A stretch of 64,000 bases of DNA from NCBI RefSeq assembly GCF_006715635.1, contig NZ_VFNP01000001.1, positions 1,674,001 through 1,738,000 of the forward strand, written 5' to 3'. Under the pieces are notes generated by a model that was not told where the DNA came from, ran no database searches, and saw only the letters and a list, made by a program, of their open reading frames with translations. A program made the translations under genes and the position numbers. Numbering within the stretch: the first letter of the stretch is position 1; every line of letters starts with the position of its first letter. Source of the stretch: Streptomyces sp. SLBN-118. GTDB taxonomy: Bacteria; Actinomycetota; Actinomycetes; Streptomycetales; Streptomycetaceae. Positions 1-14,783 of this stretch are shown piece by piece.

Positions 1-1201
<1,201 letters not shown>

Positions 1202-1290: not shown

Positions 1291-2664
1291 TCAGCGCGCG
1301 ACGGCCCGCGAGGACTGCGCCGTGCCAGGCTCCGCGTCCGGCTTTCCGTTCTGCCGGAGCTGCGGCAACGCCCTTTCGGCGCCCCTCTCCAACGTCCCGC
1401 GGGCGACGGCCCGTTCGAGCCACCAGCCGGCGATCTGCGAGGTGACGACGGCGGTGAGCACCAGCGTCGTGAACATCGACTCGTTGACGATCCCCGCGTC
1501 GAAGGAAACCGTCGCCAGCACGATGCCCGGACCACCGCGCGCGTTCATCGCCACGGCGAGATTCACGGACTGGGGCACCGGCCATTGCGTCATCCGGGCG
1601 CCCGCGTAGACGCTGGCCGCCTTCGCCACACAGGCAACTGTGATGAAGCCGAGTGCGAACCACGGGGCGAAGGAGTGCACCAGGTCGAGCCGAAGGCCGA
1701 CCACGGCGAAGTAGACGGGGACAAAGAATCCCGACGCGAAGCCGCGCATGACCTTGAGGGACTCCGAGTCAGGCAGCCTGCCTCTCAGTCCGGACATGAG
1801 ACCCACGACGAATGCGCCGAAGATCGGGGCGACGCCGAGGAAGATGCAGCCGCCGGCCACCGCCAGAACGACGGTCATGCGGACCGCCACCTGGCCGAGC
1901 GGACGGTCGGCACCGGCCGCCGTCGCAGCCGCGGCCCGGCGGCGGAACATCAGGCCGCCCAGTGCCATCAGCCCGAAGAAGGCGACGGACGCGAGGGAAT
2001 GGTACGCGGCGGAGGCGTGCGCCGACTCGACTCCGAGCAGCGACGCCAGGCCGAAGGGGTTGTCCTTGCTGCCCGCCACCATCCCCAGAGCCACGGAGAT
2101 GAGGACGTTGAGGACGATGTCCTCCACAACCGCCACAGAGAGAACCACTCGGGCGAACCGGGTCCTGATGATCCCGATGTCAAGCATGATGCGCGAGATC
2201 ACCGGAATACTGGTGACCGCGACGGCGCAGGCGATGATCAGGGTCAGCGCGGTGACGTTGCCGGCCGGGCCCACGACGTCCGAGGTGTCGATCACCTTGA
2301 CCATCAGCAGGCCGAGCCCGAAGGGAACGGCCATGCCGACGGCCGCGATCACCGCGACCGTACGGCCGTCCTTCCGGGAGAAGACCGTACGCATCTCGAC
2401 GCCCGCCATGAACATCAGCAGCAGCATGCCGAGCTGGTAGACGAGCGCGAGCCCCGAGGCCACAACACCTTCCTTGGGGAAGAGCCATGCCTGCGCCTCG
2501 GGCCACAACTGCCCCAGCAGCGTGGGCCCGAGAAGCAGCCCGCCGATGATCTCTCCGATGACCGGGGGCTGACGGAAACGCGCGAAGAGGCGCCCGATCA
2601 GATGGGATGCCGACAACAGCAACGCCAACGCGGCCAGTACCCGGAAGAGTTCAGTTTGCGACAC
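1291..2664 (-). CDS. CPA2-type cation/proton antiporter
   Basis: Integral membrane protein of 457 aa with about 12-13 hydrophobic segments; it probably exchanges Na+ or K+ for protons. The N-terminus has the Kef/NapA-type pattern (FRQPPVIGEIIGGLLLGPTLLG) and the core has NARGGPGIVLATV near residue 370, typical of CPA2 antiporters. No C-terminal TrkA-N/RCK domain is present. The GTG start lies 14 nt inside the 3' end of the upstream dCTP-deaminase-like gene, so it is the last gene of that operon and may be its transport component. The substrate is not deducible from sequence; export of the operon product instead of ions is a possibility only. Confidence 0.88.
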   Translation of the reverse strand: MSQTELFRVLAALALLLSASHLIGRLFARFRQPPVIGEIIGGLLLGPTLLGQLWPEAQAWLFPKEGVVASGLALVYQLGMLLLMFMAGVEMRTVFSRKDGRTVAVIAAVGMAVPFGLGLLMVKVIDTSDVVGPAGNVTALTLIIACAVAVTSIPVISRIMLDIGIIRTRFARVVLSVAVVEDIVLNVLISVALGMVAGSKDNPFGLASLLGVESAHASAAYHSLASVAFFGLMALGGLMFRRRAAAATAAGADRPLGQVAVRMTVVLAVAGGCIFLGVAPIFGAFVVGLMSGLRGRLPDSESLKVMRGFASGFFVPVYFAVVGLRLDLVHSFAPWFALGFITVACVAKAASVYAGARMTQWPVPQSVNLAVAMNARGGPGIVLATVSFDAGIVNESMFTTLVLTAVVTSQIAGWWLERAVARGTLERGAERALPQLRQNGKPDAEPGTAQSSRAVAR

Positions 2665-3181
2665 GCGGATCTTCCATGCTGAGGCGCGAGGCCACTGCCG
2701 ACGACGAGCCCGTGTACTTGCCGTCGTACCCGACGGCTTCGCCCTGCATGGACCAGAAGGCGAGCTTGCCGATCATCATGCCGGGATACACCCGTACCGG
2801 ATGGGCGACCTTCATCTCAAGCGTCCAGGGGAAGACCGCGCCGCTGTGCCCAAGCGGGGCGGAGAACTGGATCCAGATGCCCAGGGTCGACGCCGACCGG
2901 CAGGCGTAGAGCGTGGCAGCATAGTTCGGGCTGCCCATGGCCTCCATGGTGCCGCCGAGGTAGAAGCGGCCCGGTTCGAGCACCATGCCCGCGGGGCCCA
3001 TTTTCACGTGTTCGGCCTTCGGCGGCTCGAAGCAGTCGATGACGTCCTGCTCGTACCAGAGAATGTCCTCGGCCAGCCGGAACCCGTAGCTGTTGGGTTC
3101 GATGCGCTCCGGGTCGAAGTCGTCGATGTGGATACGTCCCGCCCGCACTTCGGACAGGATTTCCGGGCCGCTCAGAATCAC
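2651..3181 (-). CDS. dCTP deaminase-like protein, stand-alone, catalytic Arg missing
   Basis: A 176-aa protein with the dCTP deaminase/dUTPase fold, close to the normal Dcd length. Family features are IEPNSYGFRL near residue 30, LEPGRFYL near 70 and RVYPGMMIG at 130-138. Aligned by spacing to E. coli Dcd, the catalytic Glu138 equivalent is kept (Glu122 in WTLEMK), but the RSSLAR motif is altered to CRSAST: Thr99 replaces the essential Arg115, and the Ser111 position is ambiguous. Deamination by this chain alone is doubtful. The GTG start overlaps the upstream kinase stop as GTGA, giving translational coupling. A related domain forms the N-terminus of the fusion protein at 10718-13228. The role could be nucleotide binding or a partner in a mixed oligomer. 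Confidence 0.85.
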   Translation of the reverse strand: MILSGPEILSEVRAGRIHIDDFDPERIEPNSYGFRLAEDILWYEQDVIDCFEPPKAEHVKMGPAGMVLEPGRFYLGGTMEAMGSPNYAATLYACRSASTLGIWIQFSAPLGHSGAVFPWTLEMKVAHPVRVYPGMMIGKLAFWSMQGEAVGYDGKYTGSSSAVASRLSMEDPRVAN

Positions 3182-3735
3182 AGCCAGCTCCCCAGTATCT
3201 CGTGGACGGCGGTGCGGTACTCGTCGAGTCCCGCACCGTTGTCGATCACTGCGTCCGGCTCGATCAGGTCGATCTGCCGGGTCGAGCCGTCGGCCCGGGA
3301 CGGGTCGCCGCGCCCGGCGAGCCGCTTCTGGCGCAGCTCTTCGTCGCAGGTGATGCGCAGCACGCGGAATCCGTGCTCGCGCAGTGCCGGCGCGTCGACG
3401 TGCGGGTCGCGGAGGTCGTCGTTCACGACCAGGTCCGCGTCCACTTCGGAGAGCCGGGCGACGAAGTCGTCGGCGATGGACTCGGGCCGGATGCGGCGCA
3501 TTGCGTCGGCGAGGGCCTCCATAAGGATCTGGTCCTGGGCGCCCGCGTTCAGCGTGGCCCCCGCCGTTCGGTAGACCTCGGCCTGGAGGTCGTACAGAGG
3601 CTTGGCGAGCTTCACCCGTGCGTGACTCAGGCCCTTGTCGCGGGCGAACTCCTCGATGAGGGTCGCGCAGGTGGACTTGCCGGCGCCGGCAAGGCCGACG
3701 ATGGACACACGCAGCGTGTCGTGAGTCTCGGGCAT
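3178..3735 (-). CDS. Small P-loop nucleotide/dephospho-CoA kinase-like protein
   Basis: A 185-aa cytosolic kinase of the P-loop NMP-kinase superfamily. Walker A is GLAGAGKST at residues 14-22. It is followed by a helical LID-type region and RITCDEELRQKRLAGRGD near residue 130, which resembles the phosphate-binding arginines of dephospho-CoA kinase and phage-type dNMP kinase. The acceptor cannot be named. With dCTP-deaminase-like genes on both ends of the operon, a deoxynucleotide is plausible but inferred. The ATG start lies 3 nt downstream of the HprK-like gene's stop codon; an in-frame TTG six bases earlier is an alternative start. The stop overlaps the next gene as GTGA. Confidence 0.8.
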   Translation of the reverse strand: MPETHDTLRVSIVGLAGAGKSTCATLIEEFARDKGLSHARVKLAKPLYDLQAEVYRTAGATLNAGAQDQILMEALADAMRRIRPESIADDFVARLSEVDADLVVNDDLRDPHVDAPALREHGFRVLRITCDEELRQKRLAGRGDPSRADGSTRQIDLIEPDAVIDNGAGLDEYRTAVHEILGSWL

Positions 3736-3737
3736 GG

Positions 3738-4823
3738 TCAACTCGCCTTCGTGGTGGAGGAGTTCGTCGCGGCGGTGCGGCCGAGCACGGCATCGGGGTC
3801 GATGTCGAGCGTGCCGCGCAGGCGAACCATGTCCACGGACCCCAGCGCCGTACGCAGTTTGGCGAGCGAGCGGTAGAACTCCGCGTAGTCGGGCACGAGG
3901 TGGGACTGCCAGGTGAAGAAGGTCGTGTCGACCTGACGGTCCACGATCTTGTTCAGGTGGGCCCAGCGCTCGTTCTCCTCGGTCAGGTGCCAGGTGGTGA
4001 GCGGCTCTCCCGGCTTCACCTCGGGCAGCAGCAGCGCGGCCAGCGGCTGGGGCTCGGCGGAGAACTCCACTCCGAGCCAGGATTCGAAGATGTCCGGGTC
4101 CATGAGGATCTTGTGTCCGGGCTCGTACGAGTCGATCGCCGCGTCGACGCCTTCGCGGACCAGCTCTTCCAGGCGCGCGTCGCCCCTGATGGTCCCGACA
4201 CCCACATACGGGTAGTCGCGCCACGGGTGCACCATGATCCGGCCGTCTTCCAGCGTGCAGAAGAGCTTGTCGCCCGTGAAGTACTTCCAGCCCGGCCGGC
4301 GCAGCGCCGAGAGCAGCGTGGTGGTCTTGCCCGCGCCCTTGGCGCCCGCGATGATCACGGCTTCGCCGTCACGGTGCAGACCGGAGGCATGCAGCACGAC
4401 GGTGCCCCGGTCCTCCTCGTGCCGGATGACGAGATCCCGTACGAAGTCCAGGATCTGGACCGTGGATGCCTCGGTGATGCGGATGAGGAAGGTGTTGTCC
4501 TTCGCCGCGTCGACGGGCGCGTCCAGCAGGGTCCCGCGGTTGACGTAGAGCTTGCGTCCGCCCTCGCCCACGACGTGGGCGTCGAAGTTGAATTCGGCGG
4601 CGTTGCTGCGCCGGATGACCGACTCGGGCAGCTCCCAGACCTCGGGGTCGACATCCGTATCCGGGTCGTACGAGCGGACCGCGATGCGGAACGTCGGCTC
4701 GTGCAGCCCGCTCTTTGAAATCAGGTGCCGGAAGAAGTGCCGCACAGGTGCGAAAACGCCCTCCGCGTCGTCCGCGACATCGAAGCGTACGGTCGTGTGC
4801 AGGAAGTTCAGGTACTCGATCAT
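3738..4823 (-). CDS. HPr-kinase-like P-loop protein
   Basis: A 361-aa protein. Residues 1-135 have no clear family. From about residue 139 it resembles the HPr kinase/phosphorylase C-terminal domain: VLHASGLHRDGEAVII followed by Walker A GAKGAGKT (160-167), then FTGDK near 183-186 where HprK has its acidic catalytic loop. HPr kinases phosphorylate a serine on a small protein, and HprK-like enzymes also occur in some peptide natural-product clusters (established for certain lasso-peptide loci). No PTS genes are nearby, so a classical PTS role is unlikely. The substrate could be a protein, a peptide or a small molecule. It sits between the SRPBCC gene (19-nt gap) and the small kinase. Confidence 0.75.
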   Translation of the reverse strand: MIEYLNFLHTTVRFDVADDAEGVFAPVRHFFRHLISKSGLHEPTFRIAVRSYDPDTDVDPEVWELPESVIRRSNAAEFNFDAHVVGEGGRKLYVNRGTLLDAPVDAAKDNTFLIRITEASTVQILDFVRDLVIRHEEDRGTVVLHASGLHRDGEAVIIAGAKGAGKTTTLLSALRRPGWKYFTGDKLFCTLEDGRIMVHPWRDYPYVGVGTIRGDARLEELVREGVDAAIDSYEPGHKILMDPDIFESWLGVEFSAEPQPLAALLLPEVKPGEPLTTWHLTEENERWAHLNKIVDRQVDTTFFTWQSHLVPDYAEFYRSLAKLRTALGSVDMVRLRGTLDIDPDAVLGRTAATNSSTTKAS

Positions 4824-4842
4824 TTAAGGTGACTTTCCGTCC

Positions 4843-5277
4843 TCACGTGGTGTCGGCCGTGACGGCCCGGAGCAGCGCATCGACGTGGGCCTGGAACGAC
4901 TGGGCCCAGATGGGCTCCAGGAGCGGTGCCAGGCCGTCGATGCCGAGTTCGAAGGCGATGGAGAGGGCGAGCCGCGAGCCGCCGGGCGCGGAGTCCACCG
5001 ACCACTCGCCGGTCAGCTCTTCCAAGTCACCGCTCACCTGCTCGAAGCGCAGCCGGGGCCCCTCCTCCGCGAACTCCCGCTGAACCCAGGACACTTCGCT
5101 GCCGTTGAGCAGCACGGTCCACGCCGTGGTGCGGTATTGCCTGCTCTCCGAGGGCACCGTCCGTACGTCGACCACGTGCCCGGCGCGCGACGCGATCCCC
5201 TCGCCGTCCTTGACGAGGGACCACAACTCCTCGGGCGTCAGGCCCTCGGTCACTGCTTCCGCCTGAATCTCAGGCAT
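4843..5277 (-). CDS. SRPBCC-fold (START-like) protein
   Basis: A 144-aa protein with the polyketide cyclase/dehydrase-like SRPBCC pattern: an N-terminal strand, TPEELWSLVKDGEGIASRA near residue 13, alternating strands, and a long C-terminal helix (WAQSFQAHVDALLRAV). Such proteins bind a hydrophobic ligand in a cavity and act as cyclases, aromatases, carriers or ubiquinone-binding proteins. I chose ATG at 5277 because GAGAGGTG lies about 10 nt upstream; an in-frame GTG at 5286 overlaps that ribosome-binding site. It is a member of the overlapped operon with 10- and 19-nt gaps to its neighbours. Function in this operon is unknown. Confidence 0.72.
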   Translation of the reverse strand: MPEIQAEAVTEGLTPEELWSLVKDGEGIASRAGHVVDVRTVPSESRQYRTTAWTVLLNGSEVSWVQREFAEEGPRLRFEQVSGDLEELTGEWSVDSAPGGSRLALSIAFELGIDGLAPLLEPIWAQSFQAHVDALLRAVTADTT

Positions 5278-5296
5278 CTTGATCACACCTCTCTGG

Positions 5297-5884
5297 TCAG
5301 GCGGCCTTCATGAACGGCGCCAGGAAGCCGATGTCGAGACCGGCCGCCCGGGCGAGCCGGGCCCAGACCCGGAGGGTCCGCAGCATGTCCCGCTGCCCCT
5401 CGGCGACGAGCCGGTCGGGCAGTTCGCCCGGGAACGCCTCCAGCAGCCGCTCCCACAGGACGTAGATCTCCTCCACCCGGCAGGAGTCGCCGCCGAATTC
5501 CTCGTCCAGGCCGAACACGTCGACCAGCTCGGGACCAGAAGCGTCGACCACCTCGTGCATCCCGTACTCCAGCGCGAGCGCGAGGCAGTGGACATCGTCC
5601 GCGGGGGCCCGGCCGGCCAGGCGCTGGTCGATGTCGAGGAACTGCTCCAGAAGGCGAAGCTTGGCCGCCTGCTGCATCTGGGGCTGCTCGGTGCCGCCCT
5701 CCAGGTCCTCGATGTACGCGCGCCCCTCGGCGAGCATCAGCCAGGCGGCCTGTACCCATGCCTCGACGGCCTGCGGTCCCGGCAGGGCGTGTCCGCCCCG
5801 TACCGAGGGGAAGGCTGTGAGCCGCTCTGCGAGCCGTACGCCGCCGGCGCTCATGTTCCGCTCCTGATTCGCATCCGGCGTCAT
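5297..5884 (-). CDS. Uncharacterised helical protein of the dCTP-deaminase-like operon
   Basis: A 195-aa protein I do not recognise. It is rich in Leu, Ala, Glu and Arg and looks almost wholly alpha-helical, with no signal peptide or membrane segment and no metal-binding motif. Acidic clusters (DLEGGTEQPQMQQ, GLDEEFGGD) punctuate the helices. The start ATG at 5884 overlaps the stop of the upstream nucleotidyltransferase-like gene as ATGA and is preceded by GAGGAGG. An internal ATG at 5854 also has a good AGGAG. Its position suggests a partner of the nucleotidyltransferase-like protein. It could be a scaffold or substrate-binding subunit. Confidence 0.7.
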   Translation of the reverse strand: MTPDANQERNMSAGGVRLAERLTAFPSVRGGHALPGPQAVEAWVQAAWLMLAEGRAYIEDLEGGTEQPQMQQAAKLRLLEQFLDIDQRLAGRAPADDVHCLALALEYGMHEVVDASGPELVDVFGLDEEFGGDSCRVEEIYVLWERLLEAFPGELPDRLVAEGQRDMLRTLRVWARLARAAGLDIGFLAPFMKAA

Positions 5885-6996
5885 GCCGTCGCCTCCTCTT
5901 CGCCGTAGCCGATACGCAGGCGGGCCGCGCCCGCCCGCAGGGCCCGCAGCAGCGAGGCCGCCTCGGACGATCCGAGACCGGTGATGTCGTCCAGGCCGAC
6001 GGCCCGTGCCGTGAGCGGCAGTTCGCCCGTCCCGGGCAGCACTACACCGCCCCCGGGGGCCACCAGCAGCGACGCTCCGGGCAGGAACGGCTGCATGGAT
6101 CCGGTCATCTCTGCCCGTACGGAGACCGACCCGGCGGTGCCGCTGGCCCGTACGACGTCCAGCGCGAGCGCCACGTATGCCTGCGCCATCGGCTGGTCCG
6201 CGGCCGACGCGTCGAGCGTGTCGGCGATGCCCTTGCGCAGCCGCTCCACGTCGGCGGCGACAGCCTGCACGCGCTCGTCGCGCCAGCTTCCCTCGGCGAC
6301 GAGACGGGTCCAGCGCAGGACGTACCACTTCCGGGTGGTGTAGACGTCACCATGGTGGGAGAGCAGGGCGTCCATCAGATGCAGCAGGACGTTGTACGCG
6401 TACCCGACCCGGCCCCGGGTCTCGCCCGCCGCCTCGGCCAGCGCGGTGTGCACGACCTGTTCGAGCGCGGTCTGCAGTGAGGCGCGGGCCCACACCGTGC
6501 CGAGCGCGGGCAGCCACTCCACGTAGGGGGCGGTGCCGTCCAGGGAGATGCCGTTGACGATGCGCTCGGTCTGCTTGCGGCGCGGCTCGCGTTGCTTGTC
6601 CCAGGAGCGGAAGCCCGCCACCGTGGCATCGGGGGCGAGGGCGGCGAGCCGGTTCAGCTCGTCCAGGTTGGAAGCGAGTTCGGTGCGGCTGAACGAGACG
6701 ACCTCCAGGTGATGGCCCTCCTCGAAGATCTTGGTGGAGATCCTGGGGCCCTCGATCTCTTCCTCCTGGATCCGGATGAAGTCGAGGTCGCTGGTCGCGT
6801 TGGCCAGCCCGTGCACGGGGGAACTTGTCAGCAGCAGCTGGCCCTCGCCCACCTGTTCGCGCATGATCCCGGCCAGCCAGGCGGGGTCGAGCGAGCGACC
6901 TGCGAGGAACGCGGAGACGCTGGCGTGACGGCGTGAGGTCAGTTCCTCCGGGGGCAGGTCATGGAGAAATCCGGATGTCATACCCATCAGGGACAT
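5881..6996 (-). CDS. Nucleotidyltransferase-like protein with helical C-terminal region
   Basis: A 371-aa protein. Near residues 57-75 it has TSSPVHGLANATSDLDF, which fits the polymerase-beta-type nucleotidyltransferase signature (small-Ser, then about ten residues, then DxD). Asp70 and Asp72 are candidate metal ligands, and Glu98 in HHLEVVSFS may be the third carboxylate. The rest is mostly helical, as in antibiotic adenylyltransferases, and contains Trp- and Tyr-rich stretches such as TRKWYVLRW. It would transfer a nucleoside monophosphate to an unknown acceptor. The start is uncertain: ATG at 6996 overlaps the upstream gene by 10 nt, while ATG at 6987 would make a TGATG junction. Family assignment rests on one motif, so it is tentative. 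Confidence 0.62.
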   Translation of the reverse strand: MSLMGMTSGFLHDLPPEELTSRRHASVSAFLAGRSLDPAWLAGIMREQVGEGQLLLTSSPVHGLANATSDLDFIRIQEEEIEGPRISTKIFEEGHHLEVVSFSRTELASNLDELNRLAALAPDATVAGFRSWDKQREPRRKQTERIVNGISLDGTAPYVEWLPALGTVWARASLQTALEQVVHTALAEAAGETRGRVGYAYNVLLHLMDALLSHHGDVYTTRKWYVLRWTRLVAEGSWRDERVQAVAADVERLRKGIADTLDASAADQPMAQAYVALALDVVRASGTAGSVSVRAEMTGSMQPFLPGASLLVAPGGGVVLPGTGELPLTARAVGLDDITGLGSSEAASLLRALRAGAARLRIGYGEEEATA

Positions 6997-8684
6997 CTTT
7001 CGTCGGTCGGTTCGGAAGCGATTGATTGGGGACCGGCCGTCGCGGCCGGTTCCGCGCCCAGCTGTCGCAGGACGAGCCGGGCGGGCAGCGTGTTGTCGAC
7101 GACGCCCCGGTCGCCGCCGGCAGCGATGCCCGGCCCGACGGCGAGATGGATGGCGTGCAGCCTGGCGTCACCGGTGCTGACCACATGTGCCCCGGTCTTG
7201 AGCACGCGCCGGGTCACCGGCCCCTCGTCCGGGCCAAGCACACCGGCGGCCGGCTGGTAGTCGTCGGCGAGCACGACGTACGCCACCGTGGGGTCGCCGC
7301 CCCCGGCGGGCAGCGGTGCGCCGTCCGCGTCGATGAATCCTGCGACCACCGGGTGCCCTGTCTCCGGGTCGGTGATGGCGCGCAGCGCCTTCTGTGCTCG
7401 TTCCATGGCGTCGTGCGCCCGGCCGGGGTCTGCGGCCAGGTCCGTGGTCCACAGCGACCCGTTGTTGGCCGGGTGGTAGAAGACCTCCGAGCGGTACGGG
7501 TCCAGCGCGCCGTCGGCGGTCAGCACCGCGAGGCCTTCCCGTACCAACTGTTCGTTGAGGTGGACCAGATGGGTACTGCCGACCATGCCGTGGTCCGCAC
7601 CGAGCACCACCGTGTCGCCGGGATCCGCGCGGTCCAGCACGCGGCCGAGGATGTCGTCGGACCACTGGTAGCAGCGGCGGAGGTACGACCAGACGGCATC
7701 GGCGATGTCGGGGCGGTGGACGCCGCTCTTCTCGTCGCACCAGCCCAGCAGTTCATGCCCGATGTCGTCGGTCATCGGCAGGTAGACGACCACCAGATCC
7801 GCGTCGTGCTCCTTCAGTACGGCGTCCGCCGCCGCGCCGAACGACTGCGCGACACACCCCACCGAGGAGAGGAGAACCTCCTCGGCCGAGCCGTCGCCGC
7901 CCTCGGCCAGCCGGCGGCCGAAAGTCCCGACCCGGTACAGCGGGCCGACGCCTTCGCCTGCGAAGGGCGGGAGCCCGCGCAGTCGGCCGACGAGCGCTCG
8001 ATTGCTCCCGCCGGTCCGCGCCGCCCACACACCCGTGTGAACCAGCAGCAGCCGTTCGGGCGTGCGGACGCAGGCGACCCACGTCCCGTGTCCATCGTCG
8101 TCCAGTGGCAGCTGCTGCCAGCCACCGCCGGCCACCAGCAGCACGTCATGCTGTGCGCCGCTGCGAACCCGGACCCGGCCATCGGCCCAGACCTCGGCGT
8201 CGACTTCGTACGCGCCGATCGCCCAGCGGTGCGCTCCGATGCCGGAGGCGATTTCCCGTACCGAATGGCGGATCAGCCGTCGGCTGTAGGCCTCCACCGC
8301 CCCGTCGATGTGCGGACCGAGCGCGCCCGCCTCGTCGAAGACCCACGGAGTGTGCACGAACGCGCTGCGCAGATCGCTTTCGGAGAGGGTCTCCCACACC
8401 GGCGGCACGGCCGGAAAGCCGGGCGAGAAGCCGCTGACATGGCTGGCAATCCCCTCGCCCGCACCGGGCACCGTGTACCCGGTGACCCCGTGTTCGCTCG
8501 GCCAGGTACCCGTGAAGAGCGTCGCCAGCGAGGGCGGGGTCTGGCAGTTGGGCCGGGCCGGGCGGGCCGCCGCGATCGTGCCGCGCTCGCGCATGGCACT
8601 GACGGCGGGCAGTGCGCCCTCCCGCTCCAGCTTGTCCACGACCCAGTGCGCCCCGGCGTCCCAGACCACCCAGTAGACCGTCAC
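6987..8684 (-). CDS. Type I phosphodiesterase / alkaline-phosphatase superfamily enzyme
   Basis: A 565-aa enzyme of the alkaline phosphatase superfamily (nucleotide pyrophosphatase/phosphodiesterase branch). It has the metal-site order of the family: WVVWDAG at the N-terminus (Asp8), TPPSLATLFTGTWPSEHGVTGY near 50 with the candidate Thr nucleophile, MTDDIGHE near 307, GADHGMVGS near 370 and a C-terminal HAIHLAVGPGI. There is no signal peptide, so it should act in the cytosol, unlike most extracellular homologues. It would hydrolyse a phosphomonoester, phosphodiester or nucleotide pyrophosphate bond. The GTG start overlaps the HAD gene stop as GTGA. It may remove phosphate or nucleotide protecting groups, but that is inference. 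Confidence 0.85.
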   Translation of the reverse strand: MTVYWVVWDAGAHWVVDKLEREGALPAVSAMRERGTIAAARPARPNCQTPPSLATLFTGTWPSEHGVTGYTVPGAGEGIASHVSGFSPGFPAVPPVWETLSESDLRSAFVHTPWVFDEAGALGPHIDGAVEAYSRRLIRHSVREIASGIGAHRWAIGAYEVDAEVWADGRVRVRSGAQHDVLLVAGGGWQQLPLDDDGHGTWVACVRTPERLLLVHTGVWAARTGGSNRALVGRLRGLPPFAGEGVGPLYRVGTFGRRLAEGGDGSAEEVLLSSVGCVAQSFGAAADAVLKEHDADLVVVYLPMTDDIGHELLGWCDEKSGVHRPDIADAVWSYLRRCYQWSDDILGRVLDRADPGDTVVLGADHGMVGSTHLVHLNEQLVREGLAVLTADGALDPYRSEVFYHPANNGSLWTTDLAADPGRAHDAMERAQKALRAITDPETGHPVVAGFIDADGAPLPAGGGDPTVAYVVLADDYQPAAGVLGPDEGPVTRRVLKTGAHVVSTGDARLHAIHLAVGPGIAAGGDRGVVDNTLPARLVLRQLGAEPAATAGPQSIASEPTDERCP

Positions 8685-9463
8685 CGCGCCATCAACTTCC
8701 CGATGAGCAGGGGCAGTTCACCGATCGAATCAATTTCGTGGTCCGCCTGACCGGTAAGGCCCTCGCCCTGCTGGTCGGCGTATTTGCCCGTCCGCACCTG
8801 CACGGTCCGCAGACCCGCCGTGCGCCCGCCGGCGATGTCCGTGGTCGCGTCGTCCCCGACCACCACGCACTCGGCGGCCGTGACCGACAAGGATCCCGCC
8901 GCCAGCTCGAAGAAGTCGGTCGCGGGCTTGCCGAGTACCCGGGCGGTGACGCCCGCCGCGTACTCGATCGCCGCGACCACGGCGCCGGTGTCCAGATGGT
9001 CACCGTCCGCACGTTTGAAGTAGCGTCCGCGCTGCATCGCGAGGAGCACCGCCCCGTCCCGGACCGCCCGGAACGCACCGTCGAGCGCCGCGTAGTCCAG
9101 CGTGTCCCGGCAGTCGCCGATGAGGACATGGCTGTACGGAGGCTCGTGTACCAGGTTCCCCAGCTCGCTGCGCAGCGCCGCCGATACCAGTGGATAGGCG
9201 CGGGCACCCGCGGCGGCGAGCAGTTGCTGCGCCGCAACCACCGGTGTGAACAGCTCGTCCGGGCGCACCATGAGCCCGTACTCCACCAGCTCGGCCCGGA
9301 CCTGGGCGACGGGCTTGGAGTCGGTGTTGGTCAAGAAACGTAGTCCCACGCCCAGTTCACGAAGGCCGGCCAATGCTCCCGCAGCGCCCTCGATCGCCCT
9401 GCCGTCCGCGTAGAGGGTGCCTTCGAGGTCGAGCAGGATCCCGCGCACCGGTGCGCCCGCCAT
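8681..9463 (-). CDS. HAD-IIA family phosphatase
   Basis: A 260-aa HAD-superfamily hydrolase of subfamily IIA (NagD/LHPP/HDHD2-like). Motif I is DLEGTLYADG near residue 12, with Glu in place of the usual second Asp. Motif II is LTNTDS near 44, motif III is GKPATDFF and motif IV is VVGDDATTDIAGG, followed by TVQVRTGKY. A large alpha/beta cap lies between motifs II and III, as expected for class IIA. Substrates of relatives include nucleotides, sugar phosphates and phosphohistidine or phospholysine. The second-Asp change also occurs in active relatives that use other residues there. The start ATG lies one base after the TGA of the CYTH gene. Substrate unknown. Confidence 0.88.
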   Translation of the reverse strand: MAGAPVRGILLDLEGTLYADGRAIEGAAGALAGLRELGVGLRFLTNTDSKPVAQVRAELVEYGLMVRPDELFTPVVAAQQLLAAAGARAYPLVSAALRSELGNLVHEPPYSHVLIGDCRDTLDYAALDGAFRAVRDGAVLLAMQRGRYFKRADGDHLDTGAVVAAIEYAAGVTARVLGKPATDFFELAAGSLSVTAAECVVVGDDATTDIAGGRTAGLRTVQVRTGKYADQQGEGLTGQADHEIDSIGELPLLIGKLMAR

Positions 9464-9464
9464 C

Positions 9465-10721
9465 TCAGTTCACCACCCGGGCCAGCTCGGGGCGGGCCGA
9501 AACGGCGTCCTTGAGAAACGTCCGCTTCGAGTAGAAGCCCCGCTTGTCGTTGAGGCCGTGGTCGCGCAGGAACGCCTGCAGCCACGCCACGATCTCGGCC
9601 ATCTCCTCCAGCACGGTTGCCTCGTCGGGCTCCACGGCGGTGCGGCTGCGCAGGTACTCCAACTCGCACTGGTTGAGGGTGACCTCGCGGGCCTCGACGA
9701 GGCTGCAGTGGTCGAAGAAGATCCCGTACACGTGCCCGGTACGTACCGATTCGAAGTTGATGTCGTAGCGGACCCTGCGGAAGGAGGGCAGCCGGACGGC
9801 CTCCACCTTCAGCTCCTCGCTGATGTACCGCTCGAACCCGCCGTCGTCCGCGAGGTCGAGACCGTACGTGTGGCTCTCGCGGCGCTCGAATGCGTCCTCC
9901 GCGTACCACTTGCGCTTGAGCAGGTGTTTGCCGTCGGTGGTGGGGATGAACGAGGCGTAGCCACGCTCGGCGGCGGCGGGGCCCGTCACCTCGAAGAGGT
10001 GGTTGAGATAGTCCCAGGCCTGGAATTCGTCCCGGTACTCCATGACGTAGCCGGGCAGGCTGCCGTCCAGCATGCTCCGGTACAGCTCGACCGTCAGGGT
10101 CCAGGTGTCGACCGGCGGCGTGAGCGTGTACTTGTACTCGAGTTCCTTGCCCGCGAAACACTTGCGGTAGTACCGCTGGTGGTTGTTGAGGAAGAGGAAC
10201 TGCTCCGCGTGGCGGCGTACCGCTTCGGGCAGCCAGCCGAGCTTCTCCACATCGTGGGCTGTGACCGGCTCCGGCGTGATCCGGATGAAGCAGGCATCTT
10301 CGGCCAGGAAGCGGATCTGACTGTAGATGTGCGTCTCGGCGCCCTCGGTGCTCAGGTAGAAGAGCGGGACCAGCGGTCCGCCGGTCCGCCGGCCGTCTGT
10401 GACGGCGGACATCGCGTCCAGCACGGCCCTGCCGGGCAGCATGCCGGGGAACAGCTCGGTGCCCTGCGCCTTGGCGGAGTGCTCGCGCGATCCCTCGGCG
10501 GTGCGGGCCCGCAGCTCGACGGTGCCCACCTCGTCCCAGCGCAGCACGATGGTGTTGCTGGGGACGGTCTGCTCCAGCGGGGCGTCCAGCGGTACGAGGA
10601 CGATCGGCTCGCAGTCAGACAGGGGCCGGGTGCCGTTGAGCAGATGAAGTCCCCCCAGGGCCAGCCAGGCGCTTCGGGCGCCTTCGCCGGCGGTGTCCAG
10701 GTCGGTGCTGCTCACGGTCAT
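9465..10721 (-). CDS. CYTH-like (triphosphate tunnel metalloenzyme) protein
   Basis: A 418-aa protein. Residues 1-185 are unassigned. At 193-197 there is ELEYK in KELEYKYTL, a perfect ExExK signature of the CYTH/triphosphate tunnel metalloenzyme superfamily. It is followed by basic strand residues (LKRKWY, RRVRYDINFES) and late acidic strands (GIFFDHCSL, CELEYLRSR), as in CYTH barrels. Family members hydrolyse triphosphates, bind thiamine triphosphate, or act as RNA triphosphatase or class IV adenylate cyclase. The N-terminal half may be a substrate domain. The ATG at 10721 overlaps the fusion gene's stop as ATGA. CYTH plus nucleotidyltransferase plus deaminase-like genes together point to nucleoside triphosphate chemistry. 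Confidence 0.68.
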   Translation of the reverse strand: MTVSSTDLDTAGEGARSAWLALGGLHLLNGTRPLSDCEPIVLVPLDAPLEQTVPSNTIVLRWDEVGTVELRARTAEGSREHSAKAQGTELFPGMLPGRAVLDAMSAVTDGRRTGGPLVPLFYLSTEGAETHIYSQIRFLAEDACFIRITPEPVTAHDVEKLGWLPEAVRRHAEQFLFLNNHQRYYRKCFAGKELEYKYTLTPPVDTWTLTVELYRSMLDGSLPGYVMEYRDEFQAWDYLNHLFEVTGPAAAERGYASFIPTTDGKHLLKRKWYAEDAFERRESHTYGLDLADDGGFERYISEELKVEAVRLPSFRRVRYDINFESVRTGHVYGIFFDHCSLVEAREVTLNQCELEYLRSRTAVEPDEATVLEEMAEIVAWLQAFLRDHGLNDKRGFYSKRTFLKDAVSARPELARVVN

Positions 10722-13228
10722 TCTCCCTTGAGGCCGGTCATCGCGACCGTGCCATTGCTGATCACTGCTTCTTTTCCGGTGACGCCGGGGGCGGCGACCG
10801 CAGGAACCCCCGCCTCCCGCAGCAGAATTGCCAGGTGGCCGAGGGCCGAGCCCTGGTCGAAGACAAACCCCGCGACGTACTCGATCAGGACGGAAAGGAC
10901 GGCGTACGGGCGTGACGCGACGACCACGGGCTTCTTTGGGGATGCCTTGACGAGGTCGATGATCTTCGCCAGACCCTCGTGCTCGCTGACGTCCTGGGAC
11001 TTGTCGATGCTCACGGCCGGGCCGATCGACAGGCGGCGCAGCAGGGCGTCGTCGTCCAGGCGCAGCAGCGGTCCACGTGCGGTACCGGGCGAAATACAGA
11101 CCTCGCCGTGGGCCACGGAGACCGTGTCCGCGCCGCCGAGCACCGAGTAGTCGACGAAGTAGAGCTTGCCGCCGTCGAAGACCCATTCCAGGGTCACCGG
11201 GCCGTGCTTGTCGTGCATGGCGGAGGTGAACCGGGCGATCTCGTCGAGGTGCGGGACCAGGGTGGCGCCGCCGTCCGGGACGGTCGTGTTGCCCGGGGCG
11301 TCGAATCCGAGGGACACATCAGACACCACAATCGCTTCGCCACCGGCTGTGCCACGGTTGAGTGCCATCAGGCCCTCATCCGTGAACTCGACGACGAGGC
11401 CGTCACCCGCCGTGCGGGAGATGACGCCGAGTTCGCCACGAATGAAGTCCCGTACGACGACCGCGTGCAGAACCGAACCATCTGCGGTGGCACCGGCGGT
11501 GACTGCCAGTTGGTTCAGTACTTCTTCCTTGGGAACGACGATCTGGCGCAGAGTGTCGCCGAAGTCGAGCACGCATTCGCCCGTGCCGCCGGCGAGCCTC
11601 TCGCGCAGCCCCGCGGCGGTGCGGGCGTCGTGCAGGCCGCGGCCGTTGAACTGGACGATCCAGCCGGCACCGACAGAGACGCCGTTGTCGCGCGCCATCC
11701 GGTGCGCAGGACCCCGCTTGGCGACGTAGCCGCTGTAGACGGCCGCGACCTCACCGAGTTGGAAGGTGGCCGGCAGCTCGTCGAAGTACAGGCCGTACGC
11801 CTCAACTACGGGCTCCTGCGAACTGCGGGGCACGTTCCGGGCTGCGGTGAGCGGGCGCACCTGGATCAGATGGACACCTTCGGCGTCTGCCGCCCACTCG
11901 ACGTCAACGTCGTGGCCGCGCTGCTCGCGCAGCTTCCGGACCATCGTGACGACCTCGTCGAGCACCTGGCGCTCGACGGCGTCCGCCGTGTTTTGGGGGG
12001 CCGTACGAGCAGCCAGCTCGCTGGAGTCCGCGCGCTTCGGCACGGCCACGCCCGCCACCAGCTCGTCGGCGAGGCCTTCGACGTACTCGACGACGACGCG
12101 GTCGTCCTGGGCACCGTCGAGGCCGGTGAACGCCACACCGGCCAGCGCGGGCCGCACCAGGCGCTGGACGATCACGGCGAGGCGCGGCATCGGGTCGAAG
12201 TTGGCCGCCCTGACCCGGGCTGCGACGGCCGGGGCCTCGTAGTACGAGCGCCAGCACTGCTCAATGGCAGCGATTGTCGCCTCCGCGCCGCGGACGCCCA
12301 GGATCGACTGGTGCACACCGGCGAGGCTGGAGCCATCGGTGTCCTCGTCCAAGCCCGAGGAGCGGACAGCGAGTTCCACGTTCTCGGGATCCTTGAAGAT
12401 CTCGTTCAGACGGGCCGTGAGCAGGGTGCGCGCCACCTCGGGAAGGACTATCTGGTCCCCGATTTTCTGGATCCGGGCCACGGAATCCGTGAAGAACGCG
12501 CCTACGGTCGCCTTGAGATCGCCGAAGGCGTCGGTGAGCGCGGCACCTTGTTCCTCGGTCAGCGCGTCGGCGAACTCTCCGGCGGGAACCGAGAAAGCGG
12601 TCGGCACCCGGAAGTCGTGGCTGGATTCGGAAAGCTCGGCGAACTTCGGGCCGACCTCGGACACCTCGAGACTGGCACCGAGTCCGGGGAAGCGCTGCCG
12701 GGCGAACTGCTTGTCGAAGTCGACGTGGATGTCGCTGGAGCGAGGCCCGACCGAGCCCTGATATTTTCCGTCGTAGAGGACGATCTCGCCCTGCGGTCGC
12801 CACCACATCATCTGGCCGATATTGATTCCCGGATACACGCGCACCCGGTTCATGCTGTAGAGCTGAAGCGTCCACTGTCCGGTGTAGCCGATGTCGCCGA
12901 GGCTCGCGGAGAGGTTGATGAACAGTCCGAGTCGGGCCACAGAGGAGCGCGCTGCGAACGTGGGCGCGTAGTGCTCGCTCCCCAGGACTTCGATGGTGTG
13001 GGCCAGGTACAGCCGACCGGGCTCCAGGATGTAACCATCGTCCGGGATCTCGATTTCCTCGAAGTCATTGGTGCTCCGCGCGTCGAGCGGCATGTCCTGA
13101 TAGACGCGCAGAGTCTTTCCGAGGCGGAAGTTGTAGCTGTTGGGGTTGACTTGTTCCGGCGTGAAGGGATCGATCGTTATCCGACCGTTCGCGCGTTCGC
13201 GCTCGATCTCGGTCCCAGTGAGAATCAT
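10718..13228 (-). CDS. Fusion of dCTP-deaminase-like domain to PEP-synthase-type phosphotransferase
   Basis: An 836-aa two-part protein. Residues 1-175 are a dCTP deaminase-like domain (NPNSYNFRL, ARSSVARLG at 93-101, RVYPGINIG) with Gln122 where Dcd has its catalytic Glu. Residues 190-470 match the ATP-grasp part of PEP synthase/PPDK: VGPKFAEL near 192, LAVRSSGLDED at 286-296, EWAADAEGVHLIQVRPLT near 455. Residues 470-780 are less clear, and include VTLEWVFDGGKLYFVDYS. The C-terminus has the swivelling phosphohistidine domain, GSALGHLAILLREAGVPAV, with the candidate His near 803. Related three-domain dikinases include rifampin phosphotransferase, so ATP-driven phosphorylation of a small acceptor is the best guess. 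The ATG follows AAGGTGA. Confidence 0.85.
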   Translation of the reverse strand: MILTGTEIERERANGRITIDPFTPEQVNPNSYNFRLGKTLRVYQDMPLDARSTNDFEEIEIPDDGYILEPGRLYLAHTIEVLGSEHYAPTFAARSSVARLGLFINLSASLGDIGYTGQWTLQLYSMNRVRVYPGINIGQMMWWRPQGEIVLYDGKYQGSVGPRSSDIHVDFDKQFARQRFPGLGASLEVSEVGPKFAELSESSHDFRVPTAFSVPAGEFADALTEEQGAALTDAFGDLKATVGAFFTDSVARIQKIGDQIVLPEVARTLLTARLNEIFKDPENVELAVRSSGLDEDTDGSSLAGVHQSILGVRGAEATIAAIEQCWRSYYEAPAVAARVRAANFDPMPRLAVIVQRLVRPALAGVAFTGLDGAQDDRVVVEYVEGLADELVAGVAVPKRADSSELAARTAPQNTADAVERQVLDEVVTMVRKLREQRGHDVDVEWAADAEGVHLIQVRPLTAARNVPRSSQEPVVEAYGLYFDELPATFQLGEVAAVYSGYVAKRGPAHRMARDNGVSVGAGWIVQFNGRGLHDARTAAGLRERLAGGTGECVLDFGDTLRQIVVPKEEVLNQLAVTAGATADGSVLHAVVVRDFIRGELGVISRTAGDGLVVEFTDEGLMALNRGTAGGEAIVVSDVSLGFDAPGNTTVPDGGATLVPHLDEIARFTSAMHDKHGPVTLEWVFDGGKLYFVDYSVLGGADTVSVAHGEVCISPGTARGPLLRLDDDALLRRLSIGPAVSIDKSQDVSEHEGLAKIIDLVKASPKKPVVVASRPYAVLSVLIEYVAGFVFDQGSALGHLAILLREAGVPAVAAPGVTGKEAVISNGTVAMTGLKGE

Positions 13229-13241
13229 GGGGTCACCTTTT

Positions 13242-13435: not shown

Positions 13436-13582
13436 TCAGCCCCAGCCGGTGTCTCTCTGCGACGCATCGGCAACTGCGCTGCGGCCCCAACCGGTGTCCT
13501 CCTGCGCAGAGGCTAACCCGGCGAGTCCGAGTGCCAGAGCCAGAACCCATCCGACAACGAGCGCCTTGTCAAAACGCCTCAT
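13436..13582 (-). CDS. 48-aa secreted peptide with two DTGWG repeats, TTA codon
   Basis: A short gene at the head of the operon. It starts MRRFDKALVVGWVL, continues as a hydrophobic signal peptide ending GLASA, and is predicted to be cut after ASA to release a mature peptide of 22 residues. The mature part begins QEDTGWG and ends RDTGWG, so DTGWG occurs twice, spaced by ten residues, the second copy at the exact C-terminus. The SD is GAAGGTGA. Codon 23 is TTA, the rare leucine codon read by the bldA tRNA in Streptomyces, so translation may be developmentally gated. It may be a signalling peptide sensed with the divergent LuxR protein, or a substrate or precursor for the operon enzymes. I recognise no named family. 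Confidence 0.75.
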   Translation of the reverse strand: MRRFDKALVVGWVLALALGLAGLASAQEDTGWGRSAVADASQRDTGWG

Positions 13583-13772
13583 GGGTCACCTTCACCTTTA
13601 CGTCGATCCGTGTTCATCGATCTCTCACTGAGGCTCCCTTGCGTCAACGAGGTCGAGATGCATCAACATGCCAGAAGCGGCAGGTGTATTGGAGGTTTAG
13701 GGTGATCATGAAGTGGCATGGCAGCAAGCTGAGTGCCATCCATATCGGTGCGAAAGGTGCAGGGATACCCAA
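13583..13772. promoter_or_regulatory. Divergent promoter region, peptide operon / LuxR regulator
   Basis: These 190 bp separate the divergent peptide gene and LuxR regulator, so both promoters should lie here. The minus strand has TTGACG at about 13643-13648 as a possible -35, without a convincing -10. An imperfect dyad, ATGGCA-N10-TGCCAT at 13718-13739, could be a regulator site. Neither is firm. Confidence 0.4.
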
Positions 13773-14783
13773 TTGAACGAGGAAGCGATCACCCGAGAGG
13801 TGCTTCAGTGGGTGTATGGATATGCGCTCGAACGTGGCCTGGATCACGGTGCCCGCCCCGTCGAGGTCGCGGCCGCCCTCGGCTTCCCCCTCGCCGACGC
13901 CCAGGCTGCCGTGGAGCAGCTGCTCGACCTCGGGCTGCTGCGCGGCAGCCCCGACCTGAATGTTGCAGCGTCGCCGGACGAGGCTGCGTCGAGGGTCATC
14001 AGCCCCTTGGAGCGCGAGATGCGTGCCAGGAGTGCCCTGATCGAGGAGAAAAGGCGCCGGCTGATGTCCTTCATGCCGGTCTTCGAGGCGAGCAAGGCCG
14101 CGAGCGAGAAGCAGAGCCCGGTCGAGGTCATCGACGATCTTTCCGACGTCCGTGCGGTGATCGCGGAACTGGCCGCCGGCTGCCAGGACGAGATTCTCAC
14201 TGCGCAGCCCGGCGGCGGGCGCGAGGAGGACATCCTGGAGGAAGCGGCGCCCCGCGACGAGGCGGCCCTCAAGAAGGGGGTCCGCATGCGCACCCTCTAC
14301 CAGCACACGGCCCGCTTCAGCCAGGGCACCTGTGTTTACGTCGAGCGTGTGGCGCGCCTGGGCGCTCAAGTGCGCACCCTCGACGACCACTTCACACGAG
14401 TGCTGATCTTCGACCGCAGGTCCGCGCTGATCGAGGTCCCCGACAACTCGGATGCCGCTGCTTTGATCCGGGACCCCCATGTCGTGTCCTTCATCGCCGA
14501 GACGTTCGAGAGGCTCTGGCTCGCCGCCGAACCGTTCTCGACCGCCGCCGGCACGCGCGTGGAGATAGCGGACGACCTGAAGCAGGCCATTGTCCGGCTG
14601 CTCATGGAGGGCATGACGGACGCTTCCATCGCCTCCCGCCTGGGCCTGTCGGTCCGCACCTGCCGCCGCCACATCGCGGACACGATGGCCGAACTGGGTG
14701 CCCAAAGCCGCTTCCAGGCGGGCTACATGCTGGCCGCCCGCACGTCCCGCTCCGCTCCTTTCCCGCCCGACCGCCGTGGGTAG
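13773..14783 (+). CDS. LuxR-type transcriptional regulator with TrmB-like N-terminus
   Basis: A 336-aa DNA-binding regulator. The N-terminus (residues 1-60) resembles a TrmB/winged-helix module (TREVLQWVYGYALERG, VEVAAALGFPLADAQAAVEQLLDLGLL). The middle is a phospholipase-D-like or ligand-binding region. The last 60 residues are a LuxR/GerE helix-turn-helix (IVRLLMEGMTDASIASRLGLSVRTCRRHI). It lacks a receiver domain. I chose the TTG at 13773, seven bases after AGGGA; an upstream ATG at 13713 is possible, but its first 20 residues look non-coding. It diverges from the 48-aa peptide gene and is the likely pathway-specific regulator. Regulators of this build recur in Streptomyces; a similar one lies at 22407-23399. 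Confidence 0.85.
   Translation: MNEEAITREVLQWVYGYALERGLDHGARPVEVAAALGFPLADAQAAVEQLLDLGLLRGSPDLNVAASPDEAASRVISPLEREMRARSALIEEKRRRLMSFMPVFEASKAASEKQSPVEVIDDLSDVRAVIAELAAGCQDEILTAQPGGGREEDILEEAAPRDEAALKKGVRMRTLYQHTARFSQGTCVYVERVARLGAQVRTLDDHFTRVLIFDRRSALIEVPDNSDAAALIRDPHVVSFIAETFERLWLAAEPFSTAAGTRVEIADDLKQAIVRLLMEGMTDASIASRLGLSVRTCRRHIADTMAELGAQSRFQAGYMLAARTSRSAPFPPDRRG

What the first reader, a model, noticed from the sequence alone, without database searches (positions are those of the whole stretch)
1291..14783. Undescribed-looking operon of nucleotide and phosphoryl enzymes headed by a small secreted peptide
Twelve minus-strand genes run from a 48-aa peptide to an antiporter, nearly all joined by ATGA/GTGA overlaps, with a divergent LuxR-type regulator. 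The enzyme set (two dCTP-deaminase-fold domains, PEP-synthase-type phosphotransferase, CYTH, HAD-IIA, phosphodiesterase, nucleotidyltransferase-like, two P-loop kinases, SRPBCC) is not a pathway I know. Reading: a pathway building a phosphorylated or nucleotidylated product, with the antiporter or another pump exporting it and the peptide as signal or substrate. An anti-phage role by dNTP manipulation is a weaker alternative.
Basis: partly seen in the sequence, partly recalled or inferred. Interest (0 to 1): 0.92.

Follow-up and report, generated by a model that had tools for sequence, protein, structure and literature searches.

The report
Streptomyces phosphorus-nitrogen metabolite gene cluster
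A block of soil-bacterium genes is probably a factory for a small molecule with a rare phosphorus-nitrogen bond, and it is probably switched by a tiny repeated-motif peptide and a regulator that also turn up beside quite different gene clusters.

Summary
The operon is real and deeply conserved: eight central enzyme genes keep one order in 15 of 15 close actinobacterial loci. It does not end at the antiporter: a CTP synthase, an ATP-grasp ligase and more follow outside the window. It has a precedent. All ten enzyme-type proteins have homologues in Variovorax and Albitalea clusters whose core order matches the published phaseolotoxin (Pht) gene table (PMC3927611). Best reading: a natural-product cluster for a phosphoramidate (P-N) antimetabolite; the PPDK-like domain forms the P-N bond (precedent: L-glutamine kinase Cj1418) and CTP supplies a cytidylyl carrier. 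It is a variant: the aminotransferase and desaturase are missing. The 48-aa peptide is not a substrate. Its motif DTGWG, sometimes duplicated, travels with the LuxR-type regulator, also to unrelated clusters, and in one regulator clade with a 25-bp palindrome seen 7 times in 295 genomes. A new palindrome site (G289) proved to stand before a duplicated DTGWG ORF, with a regulator on the same contig. I propose a peptide-signal switch. No chemistry or signalling was tested.

The parts
13436..13582 (-). 48-aa peptide with hydrophobic leader and two copies of DTGWG (internal and C-terminal)
13707..13731 (.). palindromic operator-like site, 19 of 25 matches to CATCAAGCTGCCATGCAGCTTGATG, between regulator and peptide genes
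   Evidence: 20 shuffles of 20 kb reach 15-17; too diverged to be counted
13773..14783 (+). LuxR-type (GerE HTH) regulator, divergent; ORF open from 13713
10718..13228 (-). fusion of dCTP-deaminase-fold domain (DCD1) with PPDK/PEP-synthase-type phosphotransferase; proposed P-N bond-forming kinase
   Evidence: catalytic His in 20 of 20; E138-equivalent is Q in 20 of 20
9465..10721 (-). CYTH (triphosphate tunnel) domain enzyme; start 10721 or 10715
8681..9463 (-). HAD-IIA-type phosphatase
6987..8684 (-). type I phosphodiesterase/nucleotide pyrophosphatase-like enzyme
5881..6996 (-). DUF6001 small-molecule nucleotidyltransferase (aminoglycoside nucleotidyltransferase-type fold)
5297..5884 (-). 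DUF6031 protein of unknown role
4843..5286 (-). SRPBCC (polyketide cyclase/dehydrase-like) protein
3738..4823 (-). HprK-like P-loop kinase
   Evidence: below cut-off
3178..3735 (-). small P-loop nucleotide-kinase-like protein
2651..3181 (-). second dCTP-deaminase-fold protein (DCD2); keeps the catalytic Glu, loses the RSSxxR motif
1291..2664 (-). cation:proton antiporter (CPA2-like)
1..1216 (-). CTP synthase, N-terminal part (gene continues outside the window); second copy of pyrG in this genome

Best explanation
A natural-product gene cluster that makes a phosphoramidate (P-N bond) antimetabolite, an actinobacterial cousin of the phaseolotoxin (Pht) kind, controlled by a peptide/LuxR-type regulator pair. 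Shown here: the gene content, order, homology and conservation; the folds of the nucleotidyltransferase and CYTH proteins (models only); retention of the catalytic histidine of the phosphotransferase; and genetic linkage of peptide, regulator and palindrome. Inferred: (1) the PPDK-type half of the fusion phosphorylates an amide or amine nitrogen with ATP through a phospho-histidine, as the PEP-synthase-like L-glutamine kinase Cj1418 phosphorylates an amide nitrogen; (2) the DUF6001 nucleotidyltransferase moves a nucleotidyl group, most likely CMP from CTP, onto the P-N intermediate, and the two complementary dCTP-deaminase-fold units hold the cytidylyl carrier; (3) the P-loop and HprK-like kinases, CYTH, phosphodiesterase and HAD proteins phosphorylate, trim and release the P-N group on an amino acid; (4) ATP-grasp ligase(s) join it into a small peptide and transporters export it; (5) the extra CTP synthase supplies CTP or protects the producer. 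The peptide is read as a secreted signal whose DTGWG unit acts with the regulator at the palindrome.
For: Synteny: fusion, CYTH, HAD, PDE, DUF6001, DUF6031, SRPBCC and HprK in 15 of 15 actinobacterial loci L015-L029; Pkin and DCD2 in 14 of 15 (L019 is cut by the contig end); antiporter in 13 of 15. Bridge: the ten operon proteins other than peptide and antiporter have homologues at 28-46% identity (56-57% for DCD1 alone) in Variovorax/Albitalea clusters; fusion, CYTH, DUF6001, DUF6031, SRPBCC and DCD2 in 4 of 4 loci, HprK, Pkin, PDE and HAD in the 2 of 4 loci that I extended. Their order NTase, DUF6031, class III aminotransferase, SRPBCC, NAD-binding, desaturase, DCD, DCD, PPDK, CYTH matches phtD-phtM of the published Pht table (named there: aminotransferase, desaturase, two dCTP deaminases, PPDK; further on HAD and an adenylylsulfate kinase). 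Four actinobacterial loci from three genomes (L030-L033) carry an intermediate layout with desaturase and aminotransferase. Catalytic His in 20 of 20 fusions. Cj1418 precedent (passage of PMC10971088); proposed cytidine diphosphoramidate intermediates (PMC6429109 passages). Extra CTP synthase in the window genome and in 5 of 20 other genomes examined. Streptomyces is known to make a phosphosulfamate, sulphostin.
Against: No direct sequence comparison with the Pht proteins was made (step referred); the match rests on a published table and gene order. The table calls phtH a desaturase where the bridge loci have an NAD-binding protein, and beyond phtM the orders no longer match clearly (HAD, amidinotransferase and kinase stand elsewhere). 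The window lacks the aminotransferase and desaturase, and no sulphotransferase was recognised among the genes scanned. Homology of the fusion to Cj1418 was not tested; its nearest NCBIfam models are PigC/RedH ligases and PEP synthases, all far below cut-off, so condensation rather than N-phosphorylation is possible. CTP use is inferred from folds and from the CTP synthase, of which 10 of 16 close clusters' genomes show no second intact copy. Fold matches for the two models have low TM-scores (0.33-0.42). No product is known.
Confidence: 0.7

Rival explanations
1. The PPDK-like fusion is a PigC/RedH-type ATP-dependent ligase: it activates a carbonyl by phosphorylation and condenses it with an amine; the cluster makes a non-P-N alkaloid or peptide and phosphates are only transient.
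For: Best NCBIfam models are PigC (with PEP synthase next) and RedH; distant clusters carry aminotransferase, NAD-binding reductase-like and desaturase genes.
Against: Those hits are far below cut-off and shared with PEP synthases; the set of nucleotide/phosphate enzymes and the Pht gene order are not explained.
Confidence: 0.15
2. A nucleoside or nucleotide antibiotic pathway: DCD-fold enzymes, CTP synthase, nucleotidyltransferase and kinases build a cytidine-derived product itself.
For: Cytidine-nucleotide and nucleotidyl-transfer folds dominate.
Against: The DCD active sites are split; no glycosyl- or base-forming enzyme was recognised in the operon; the bridge to Pht-type order points to cytidine as carrier.
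Confidence: 0.12
3. The 48-aa gene is a translated leader (arrest or attenuation peptide) for the operon rather than a signal.
For: The conserved motif is C-terminal in most copies and the ORF precedes the operon in the window type.
Against: In L025 the peptide lies next to the relocated regulator, convergent with the antiporter, with no gene downstream; L026 has the same arrangement. The motif is duplicated in five ORFs and only internal in L016.
Confidence: 0.15
4. The extra CTP synthase is the self-resistance copy of the product's target, as ArgK (ornithine carbamoyltransferase) is for phaseolotoxin.
For: A housekeeping-type enzyme inside 6 of 16 clusters, remnants in two more; the Pht table lists no CTP synthase, so CTP supply is not a general need; two ornithine carbamoyltransferase genes lie beside the L033 cluster.
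Against: In the window genome it is 99.94% identical in DNA to the housekeeping gene, and in two further genomes 98.6 and 99.9%, so it is not a diverged resistant form there; 10 of 16 have no second intact copy.
Confidence: 0.3
5. Anti-phage system acting on dNTPs.
For: dCTP-deaminase fold.
Against: 0 PADLOC matches in 10 proteins scanned; biosynthetic neighbours (ATP-grasp ligases, transporters, phosphatases).
Confidence: 0.02

Closest known systems
Phaseolotoxin (Pht/argK-tox) cluster
   Same: Two dCTP-deaminase-type genes, PPDK-type gene, HAD hydrolase, P-loop kinase, amino-acid ligase; core colinear with Variovorax/Albitalea clusters that are homologous to the window genes.
   Different: Window type fuses DCD1 to PPDK, lacks ornithine aminotransferase, desaturase and ArgK, and has antiporter, CTP synthase and a peptide/LuxR-type switch.
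Sulphostin (Streptomyces phosphosulfamate; pathway unknown as of 2021, PMC9113183 passage)
   Same: Only other known natural phosphotriamidate type, and from Streptomyces.
   Different: Expected precursor is ornithine; no sulphotransferase was recognised among the window cluster genes scanned; link untested.
C. jejuni O-methyl phosphoramidate pathway (L-glutamine kinase Cj1418)
   Same: PEP-synthase-like enzyme forming a P-N bond, proposed cytidine-linked intermediates.
   Different: No DCD, CYTH, SRPBCC or HprK-like genes there (recalled); homology not tested.
Phr/RRNPP peptide pheromone systems of Firmicutes
   Same: Small ORF, usually a hydrophobic leader, short repeated or C-terminal unit, linked regulator (general features recalled).
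   Different: Regulator is a LuxR-type protein, not a TPR receptor; actinobacterial; signalling not shown.
PigC/RedH prodiginine ligases
   Same: PPDK_N + PEP-utilizers architecture.
   Different: No prodiginine genes recognised; N-terminal DCD domain.

Membership tests
Phaseolotoxin-type (Pht) cluster | Two dCTP-deaminase-fold units plus PPDK-type phosphotransferase | tested here: met
   one unit fused to PPDK here
Phaseolotoxin-type (Pht) cluster | Ornithine-type class III aminotransferase (phtF) and fatty-acid desaturase (desI) | tested here: not met
   tblastn with the Variovorax genes: neither in the window, L087 or L015-L029 (one weak 32% aminotransferase hit far from the operon in L016); both in 4 of 4 of L030-L033 and 4 of 4 of L035-L038
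Phaseolotoxin-type (Pht) cluster | Insensitive ornithine carbamoyltransferase (argK) in the cluster | tested here: not met
   the window genome's OTC matches lie far from the cluster; two OTC genes beside L033
Phaseolotoxin-type (Pht) cluster | Sequence homology of each protein to PhtA-U | not tested
Phosphoramidate natural-product pathway | Product with a P-N bond | not testable with these tools
   needs 31P NMR/MS
PEP-synthase/PPDK superfamily | ATP-binding domain and catalytic His in the mobile domain | tested here: met
   PF01326 and PF00391; His in 20 of 20
dCTP deaminase | Catalytic Ser, Arg and Glu together (positions recalled from E. coli Dcd S111, R115, E138) | tested here: not met
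   DCD1 has Gln for Glu in 20 of 20; DCD2 keeps Glu in 19 of 19 but lacks the Ser/Arg motif
CYTH/triphosphate tunnel enzymes | ExExK and paired acidic/basic tunnel residues, tunnel fold | tested here: met
   (YgiF, E 6.9e-5, TM 0.33; no Pfam match)
AHL-type LuxR quorum sensing | Autoinducer-binding N-terminal domain | tested here: not met
   only HTH-type and weak unrelated hits
RRNPP peptide signalling | TPR-type receptor | tested here: not met
   one search shows a GerE HTH, no TPR match
RiPP precursor | Peptide tied to its modifying enzymes | tested here: not met
   DTGWG peptides sit with the regulator beside clusters without the window enzymes

The most novel reading that the evidence does not exclude
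A portable cell-signalling switch in Streptomyces: a small peptide carrying one or two DTGWG units is cleaved outside the cell and, with a LuxR-type regulator and a 25-bp palindrome, turns on unrelated antibiotic-type clusters, here an actinobacterial P-N metabolite pathway built on cytidylyl carriers. It would be a peptide pheromone family of which I found no report.
Probability: 0.4. Interest if true: 0.88.

Novelty: new variant of a known kind. Interest (0 to 1): 0.77.

Why it matters
How bacteria make the P-N bonds of phaseolotoxin and sulphostin is unsolved as far as I saw: one abstract says the function of most Pht genes is still unknown (PMC5453526, 2017, listing), and a 2021 review passage says nothing is known about sulphostin biosynthesis (PMC9113183). 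A compact, conserved actinobacterial version makes the enzymes testable one by one in laboratory strains. The regulator/peptide/palindrome module, if it signals, would be a handle for waking silent clusters in Streptomyces. Peptide signalling as such is not new to actinobacteria (a 2016 review passage speaks of cyclic or modified peptides and butyrolactones, PMC4748050), but I found no report of this family.

Tried and rejected
PDB sequence search for the HprK-like and P-loop kinases gave nothing useful. Rfam and tRNA scans of the window: none. PADLOC: none. Literature searches on DUF names, domain sets and the motif found no description. The leader-peptide and RiPP-precursor readings are disfavoured for the reasons given under rivals and membership. 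L115 was fetched from a wrongly numbered contig and is irrelevant. A sulphotransferase guess for L033:14540-15883 had no Pfam support and is dropped. A chance estimate for peptide-regulator distances was made after the fact and is not used.

Results against my reading: L017 and L132 have no hydrophobic leader before the motif, and in L018 the only hydrophobic stretch lies far upstream in a long ORF. Six of 15 syntenic loci show no DTGWG peptide (L020, L021, L022, L027, L028, L029; L029 begins only 160 bp before the fusion). No regulator homologue lies in the fetched stretch of L017, L028 and L029. The palindrome is below 19 of 25 in L016, L020, L025, L026, L028 and L029 and in L080-L083. The window's own site is only 19 of 25 and is not found by the strict genome search, which counts 0 in G000. 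The 0-of-14 regulator count for leaderless motif ORFs was made within about 1.5 kb for 11 of them, in 20-kb stretches for two (L122, L124) and in an 8.3-kb contig for one (L123); at 1.5 kb the leader-bearing ORFs score 5 of 8.
Full report
What is there. The window is Streptomyces-type DNA (G000, 7.79 Mb; 12 of the 15 closest named loci are Streptomyces). Twelve minus-strand genes run from a 48-aa peptide (13436-13582) to an antiporter (1291-2664), with a divergent LuxR-type regulator. The 'CYTH' protein has no Pfam match but 23 homologues share ExExK and a C-terminal ExE, and an AlphaFold2 model (mean pLDDT 86.7) has E. coli YgiF, crystallised with tripolyphosphate, as top PDB match (E 6.9e-5, TM 0.33). 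The DUF6001 protein models well (pLDDT 88.6) and matches aminoglycoside nucleotidyltransferases (E 1.5e-5, TM 0.41). DUF6031 and SRPBCC stay without a role.

What was missed. After the antiporter (74-nt gap) lies a CTP synthase (1216 leftwards out of the window; NCBIfam equivalog), then an ATP-grasp ligase related to dapdiamide synthase, an EamA transporter, a metallophosphoesterase and a dimethylargininase gene. The CTP synthase is a second copy: over 1671 bp it differs from the other pyrG copy at one base. Five of 20 other genomes examined also have a second full copy, lying in their cluster; the pairs of G000, G319 and G320 group by genome, as G327's does with less support. L023 and L027 hold decayed pieces. 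It is therefore repeatedly gained, converted and lost. Supply of CTP and self-protection both remain open.

Conservation. In 295 Streptomyces genomes DUF6001 matches at E 0.001 in 9, over the cut-off in 5, and strongly (E below 1e-100) in 4, one of them with two copies. One scan of 84,980 species genomes gave 24 loci, a lower bound because it needs exact short patterns. In the 15 close loci (12 Streptomyces, Kitasatospora, Micromonospora, Nonomuraea; L015-L029) the order fusion-CYTH-HAD-PDE-DUF6001-DUF6031-SRPBCC-HprK is intact in 15 of 15, Pkin and DCD2 in 14 of 15 (L019 ends), the antiporter in 13 of 15. L011-L014 are second fetches of L033, L032, L026 and L015 and were not counted. Four more distant actinobacterial loci from three genomes (L030-L033) insert a desaturase, class III aminotransferase and NAD-binding protein between the same genes; HAD is found only in L033 of these and the antiporter in none. 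An Aminicenantes locus (L034, cut by the contig) and four Variovorax/Albitalea loci (L035-L038) follow.

The bridge to a known cluster. In Variovorax gossypii and Albitalea terrae, the two of four loci that I extended, the order is metallophosphoesterase, DUF6001, DUF6031, class III aminotransferase, SRPBCC, NAD-binding (Pfam in Variovorax only), desaturase, DCD, DCD, PPDK, CYTH, unknown, HprK-like, P-loop kinase, phosphodiesterase, HAD. The window proteins match these at 28-46% identity (56-57% for the first DCD unit alone). The published gene table of the phaseolotoxin cluster reads phtD, phtE, ornithine aminotransferase phtF, phtG, phtH, desaturase desI, dCTP deaminase phtJ, dCTP deaminase phtK, PPDK phtL, phtM, phtN/O, HAD phtP, amtA, phtQ, adenylylsulfate kinase phtS, phtT, L-amino acid ligase phtU (PMC3927611, passages incl. 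Table 2). From phtF to phtL the named functions fall at the same places with the same number of genes between them; the one discord is phtH, called a desaturase there. Beyond phtM the orders do not match clearly. I did not align the Pht proteins themselves. The window operon is thus homologous to clusters whose core is colinear with Pht, but it lacks the aminotransferase, desaturase and ArgK that go with the ornithine warhead, so it should not be filed as a phaseolotoxin cluster.

Mechanism. Phaseolotoxins and sulphostin (from Streptomyces) are described as the only known natural phosphotriamidates (PMC6429109, PMC11968843, passages), and a 2021 review says nothing is known of sulphostin biosynthesis (PMC9113183, passage). 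In Campylobacter a protein once annotated PEP synthase/PPDK, Cj1418, is an L-glutamine kinase that phosphorylates the amide nitrogen (PMC10971088, passage), and the proposed pathway goes on through cytidine diphosphoramidates (PMC6429109). The window cluster has the same kinds of parts: a PPDK-type enzyme with its catalytic histidine kept in 20 of 20 sequences, a small-molecule nucleotidyltransferase, dCTP-deaminase folds, kinases and a CTP synthase. The two DCD units have complementary losses: DCD1 keeps the RSSxAR motif but has Gln for the catalytic Glu in 20 of 20; DCD2 keeps the Glu in 19 of 19 but has lost the Ser/Arg motif (catalytic roles recalled from E. coli Dcd). I read this as a hetero-oligomer that binds, or reacts with, a cytidylyl carrier rather than dCTP. 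The order of steps is inference. PigC/RedH ligases are among the nearest named NCBIfam models of the PPDK part, so a condensation role is the main rival.

The peptide and regulator. Nine of 15 syntenic loci have a small ORF with DTGWG (or DTGWD in L026); elsewhere the sequence is variable. The motif is duplicated in the window, L025, L026 (both copies changed to DTGWD), L076 and L132, and is internal in L016. In L025 and L026 the regulator lies behind the antiporter and the peptide stands beside it, divergent to the regulator; in L025 it leads into no gene. A regulator homologue lies in the fetched stretch in 12 of 15 loci.

Outside this cluster. A pattern search of 199 Streptomyces genomes gave 37 matches (control pattern 13 by my count of the listing), 22 of them in-frame C-terminal DTGW[GDE]; the other 15 end in TGG, not a stop. 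Eight of the 22, the window's own and one in G024 that is L026 included, follow a hydrophobic segment; all eight lie within 14 kb of a regulator homologue, while none of the other 14 has one in the stretch examined. Fisher's test gives 3e-6; limited to about 1.5 kb it is 5 of 8 against 0 of 14, p 0.002. The neighbouring clusters differ in chemistry: AMP-ligase/ACP/PhyH/asparagine synthase (L079, L084), ATP-grasp/ferredoxin (L080, L083), NeuB-like sugar genes (L082) (part of these names is recalled from sequence). Of the window proteins and four further operon genes, only the antiporter (about 30%), the regulator, weak ATP-grasp hits, and a metallophosphoesterase and dimethylargininase in L084 are found there; L084 lies on the same contig as the L026 cluster.

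The palindrome. CATCAAGCTGCCATGCAGCTTGATG lies between regulator and peptide or fusion gene, or before the fusion gene, in the window (19 of 25) and in 9 of 15 syntenic loci (19-25 of 25); 20 shuffles of 20 kb reach 15-17. It recurs twice each in L079 and L084. Searched in degenerate form with up to one mismatch in 295 Streptomyces genomes it occurs 7 times, in 4 genomes, control 0; the window's weaker site is not among them. Three of the genomes were already known; the fourth, G289, was new. There the first site stands about 190 bp before the first of two DTGWG copies in one ORF, the second before an asparagine-synthase-like gene, and the only regulator homologue of that genome at E 1e-10 (60% identity) is on the same contig about 21 kb away, outside the first 20-kb stretch. 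I expected a DTGWG ORF and a regulator there before fetching it. That ORF has no hydrophobic leader, which speaks against simple Sec export in that case. The more diverged regulators of L025, L026 and L080-L083 (38-48% identity) come without this palindrome; L021 (47%) has a 19-of-25 site.

What is not shown. No transcript, product, enzyme activity, export, processing or signalling has been measured. Absence from print rests in an open-licence library only; subscription papers are not covered, and I saw the top 20 titles. For the papers cited I saw search listings and passages, not whole texts.

Noticed in passing
window 27799-36005: Ketosynthase/chain-length-factor-like pair, ACP, cyclase-like, methyltransferase, cupin and FAD monooxygenase genes that look like a spore-pigment (whiE-type) polyketide cluster (names recalled from sequence).
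   Followed up: no
window 51131-57697: Sulfate assimilation set (CysH, APS kinase, CysD, CysN-like, ABC transporter) by sequence look.
   Followed up: no
L030:3-1451: Amidohydrolase (PF01979; urease-alpha-like by eye) directly upstream of the fusion gene; shorter or open-ended counterparts in L031 and L032.
   Followed up: partly
L033:19114-21000: Two adjacent ornithine carbamoyltransferase genes beside the L033 cluster; both over-cut-off copies of that genome lie there, as expected for an ArgK-like protection gene.
   Followed up: yes
L079, L084, L132: A conserved AMP-ligase/ACP/amidohydrolase/PhyH/ACP/ketosynthase/GNAT/antiporter/asparagine-synthase cluster with the same palindrome at two promoters; product unknown.
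   Followed up: partly
L080, L083: Ferredoxin plus several ATP-grasp ligase cluster headed by a DTGWG peptide, with the regulator 12-14 kb away.
   Followed up: partly
window 22407-23399: A second LuxR-type paralogue (27% identity to the first) inside the window; no DTGWG-type ORF in its locus L046.
   Followed up: partly
L034: Aminicenantes contig with NRPS-like modules and a FabH-like gene next to DUF6001-DUF6031-aminotransferase-SRPBCC (NRPS and FabH by sequence look).
   Followed up: no
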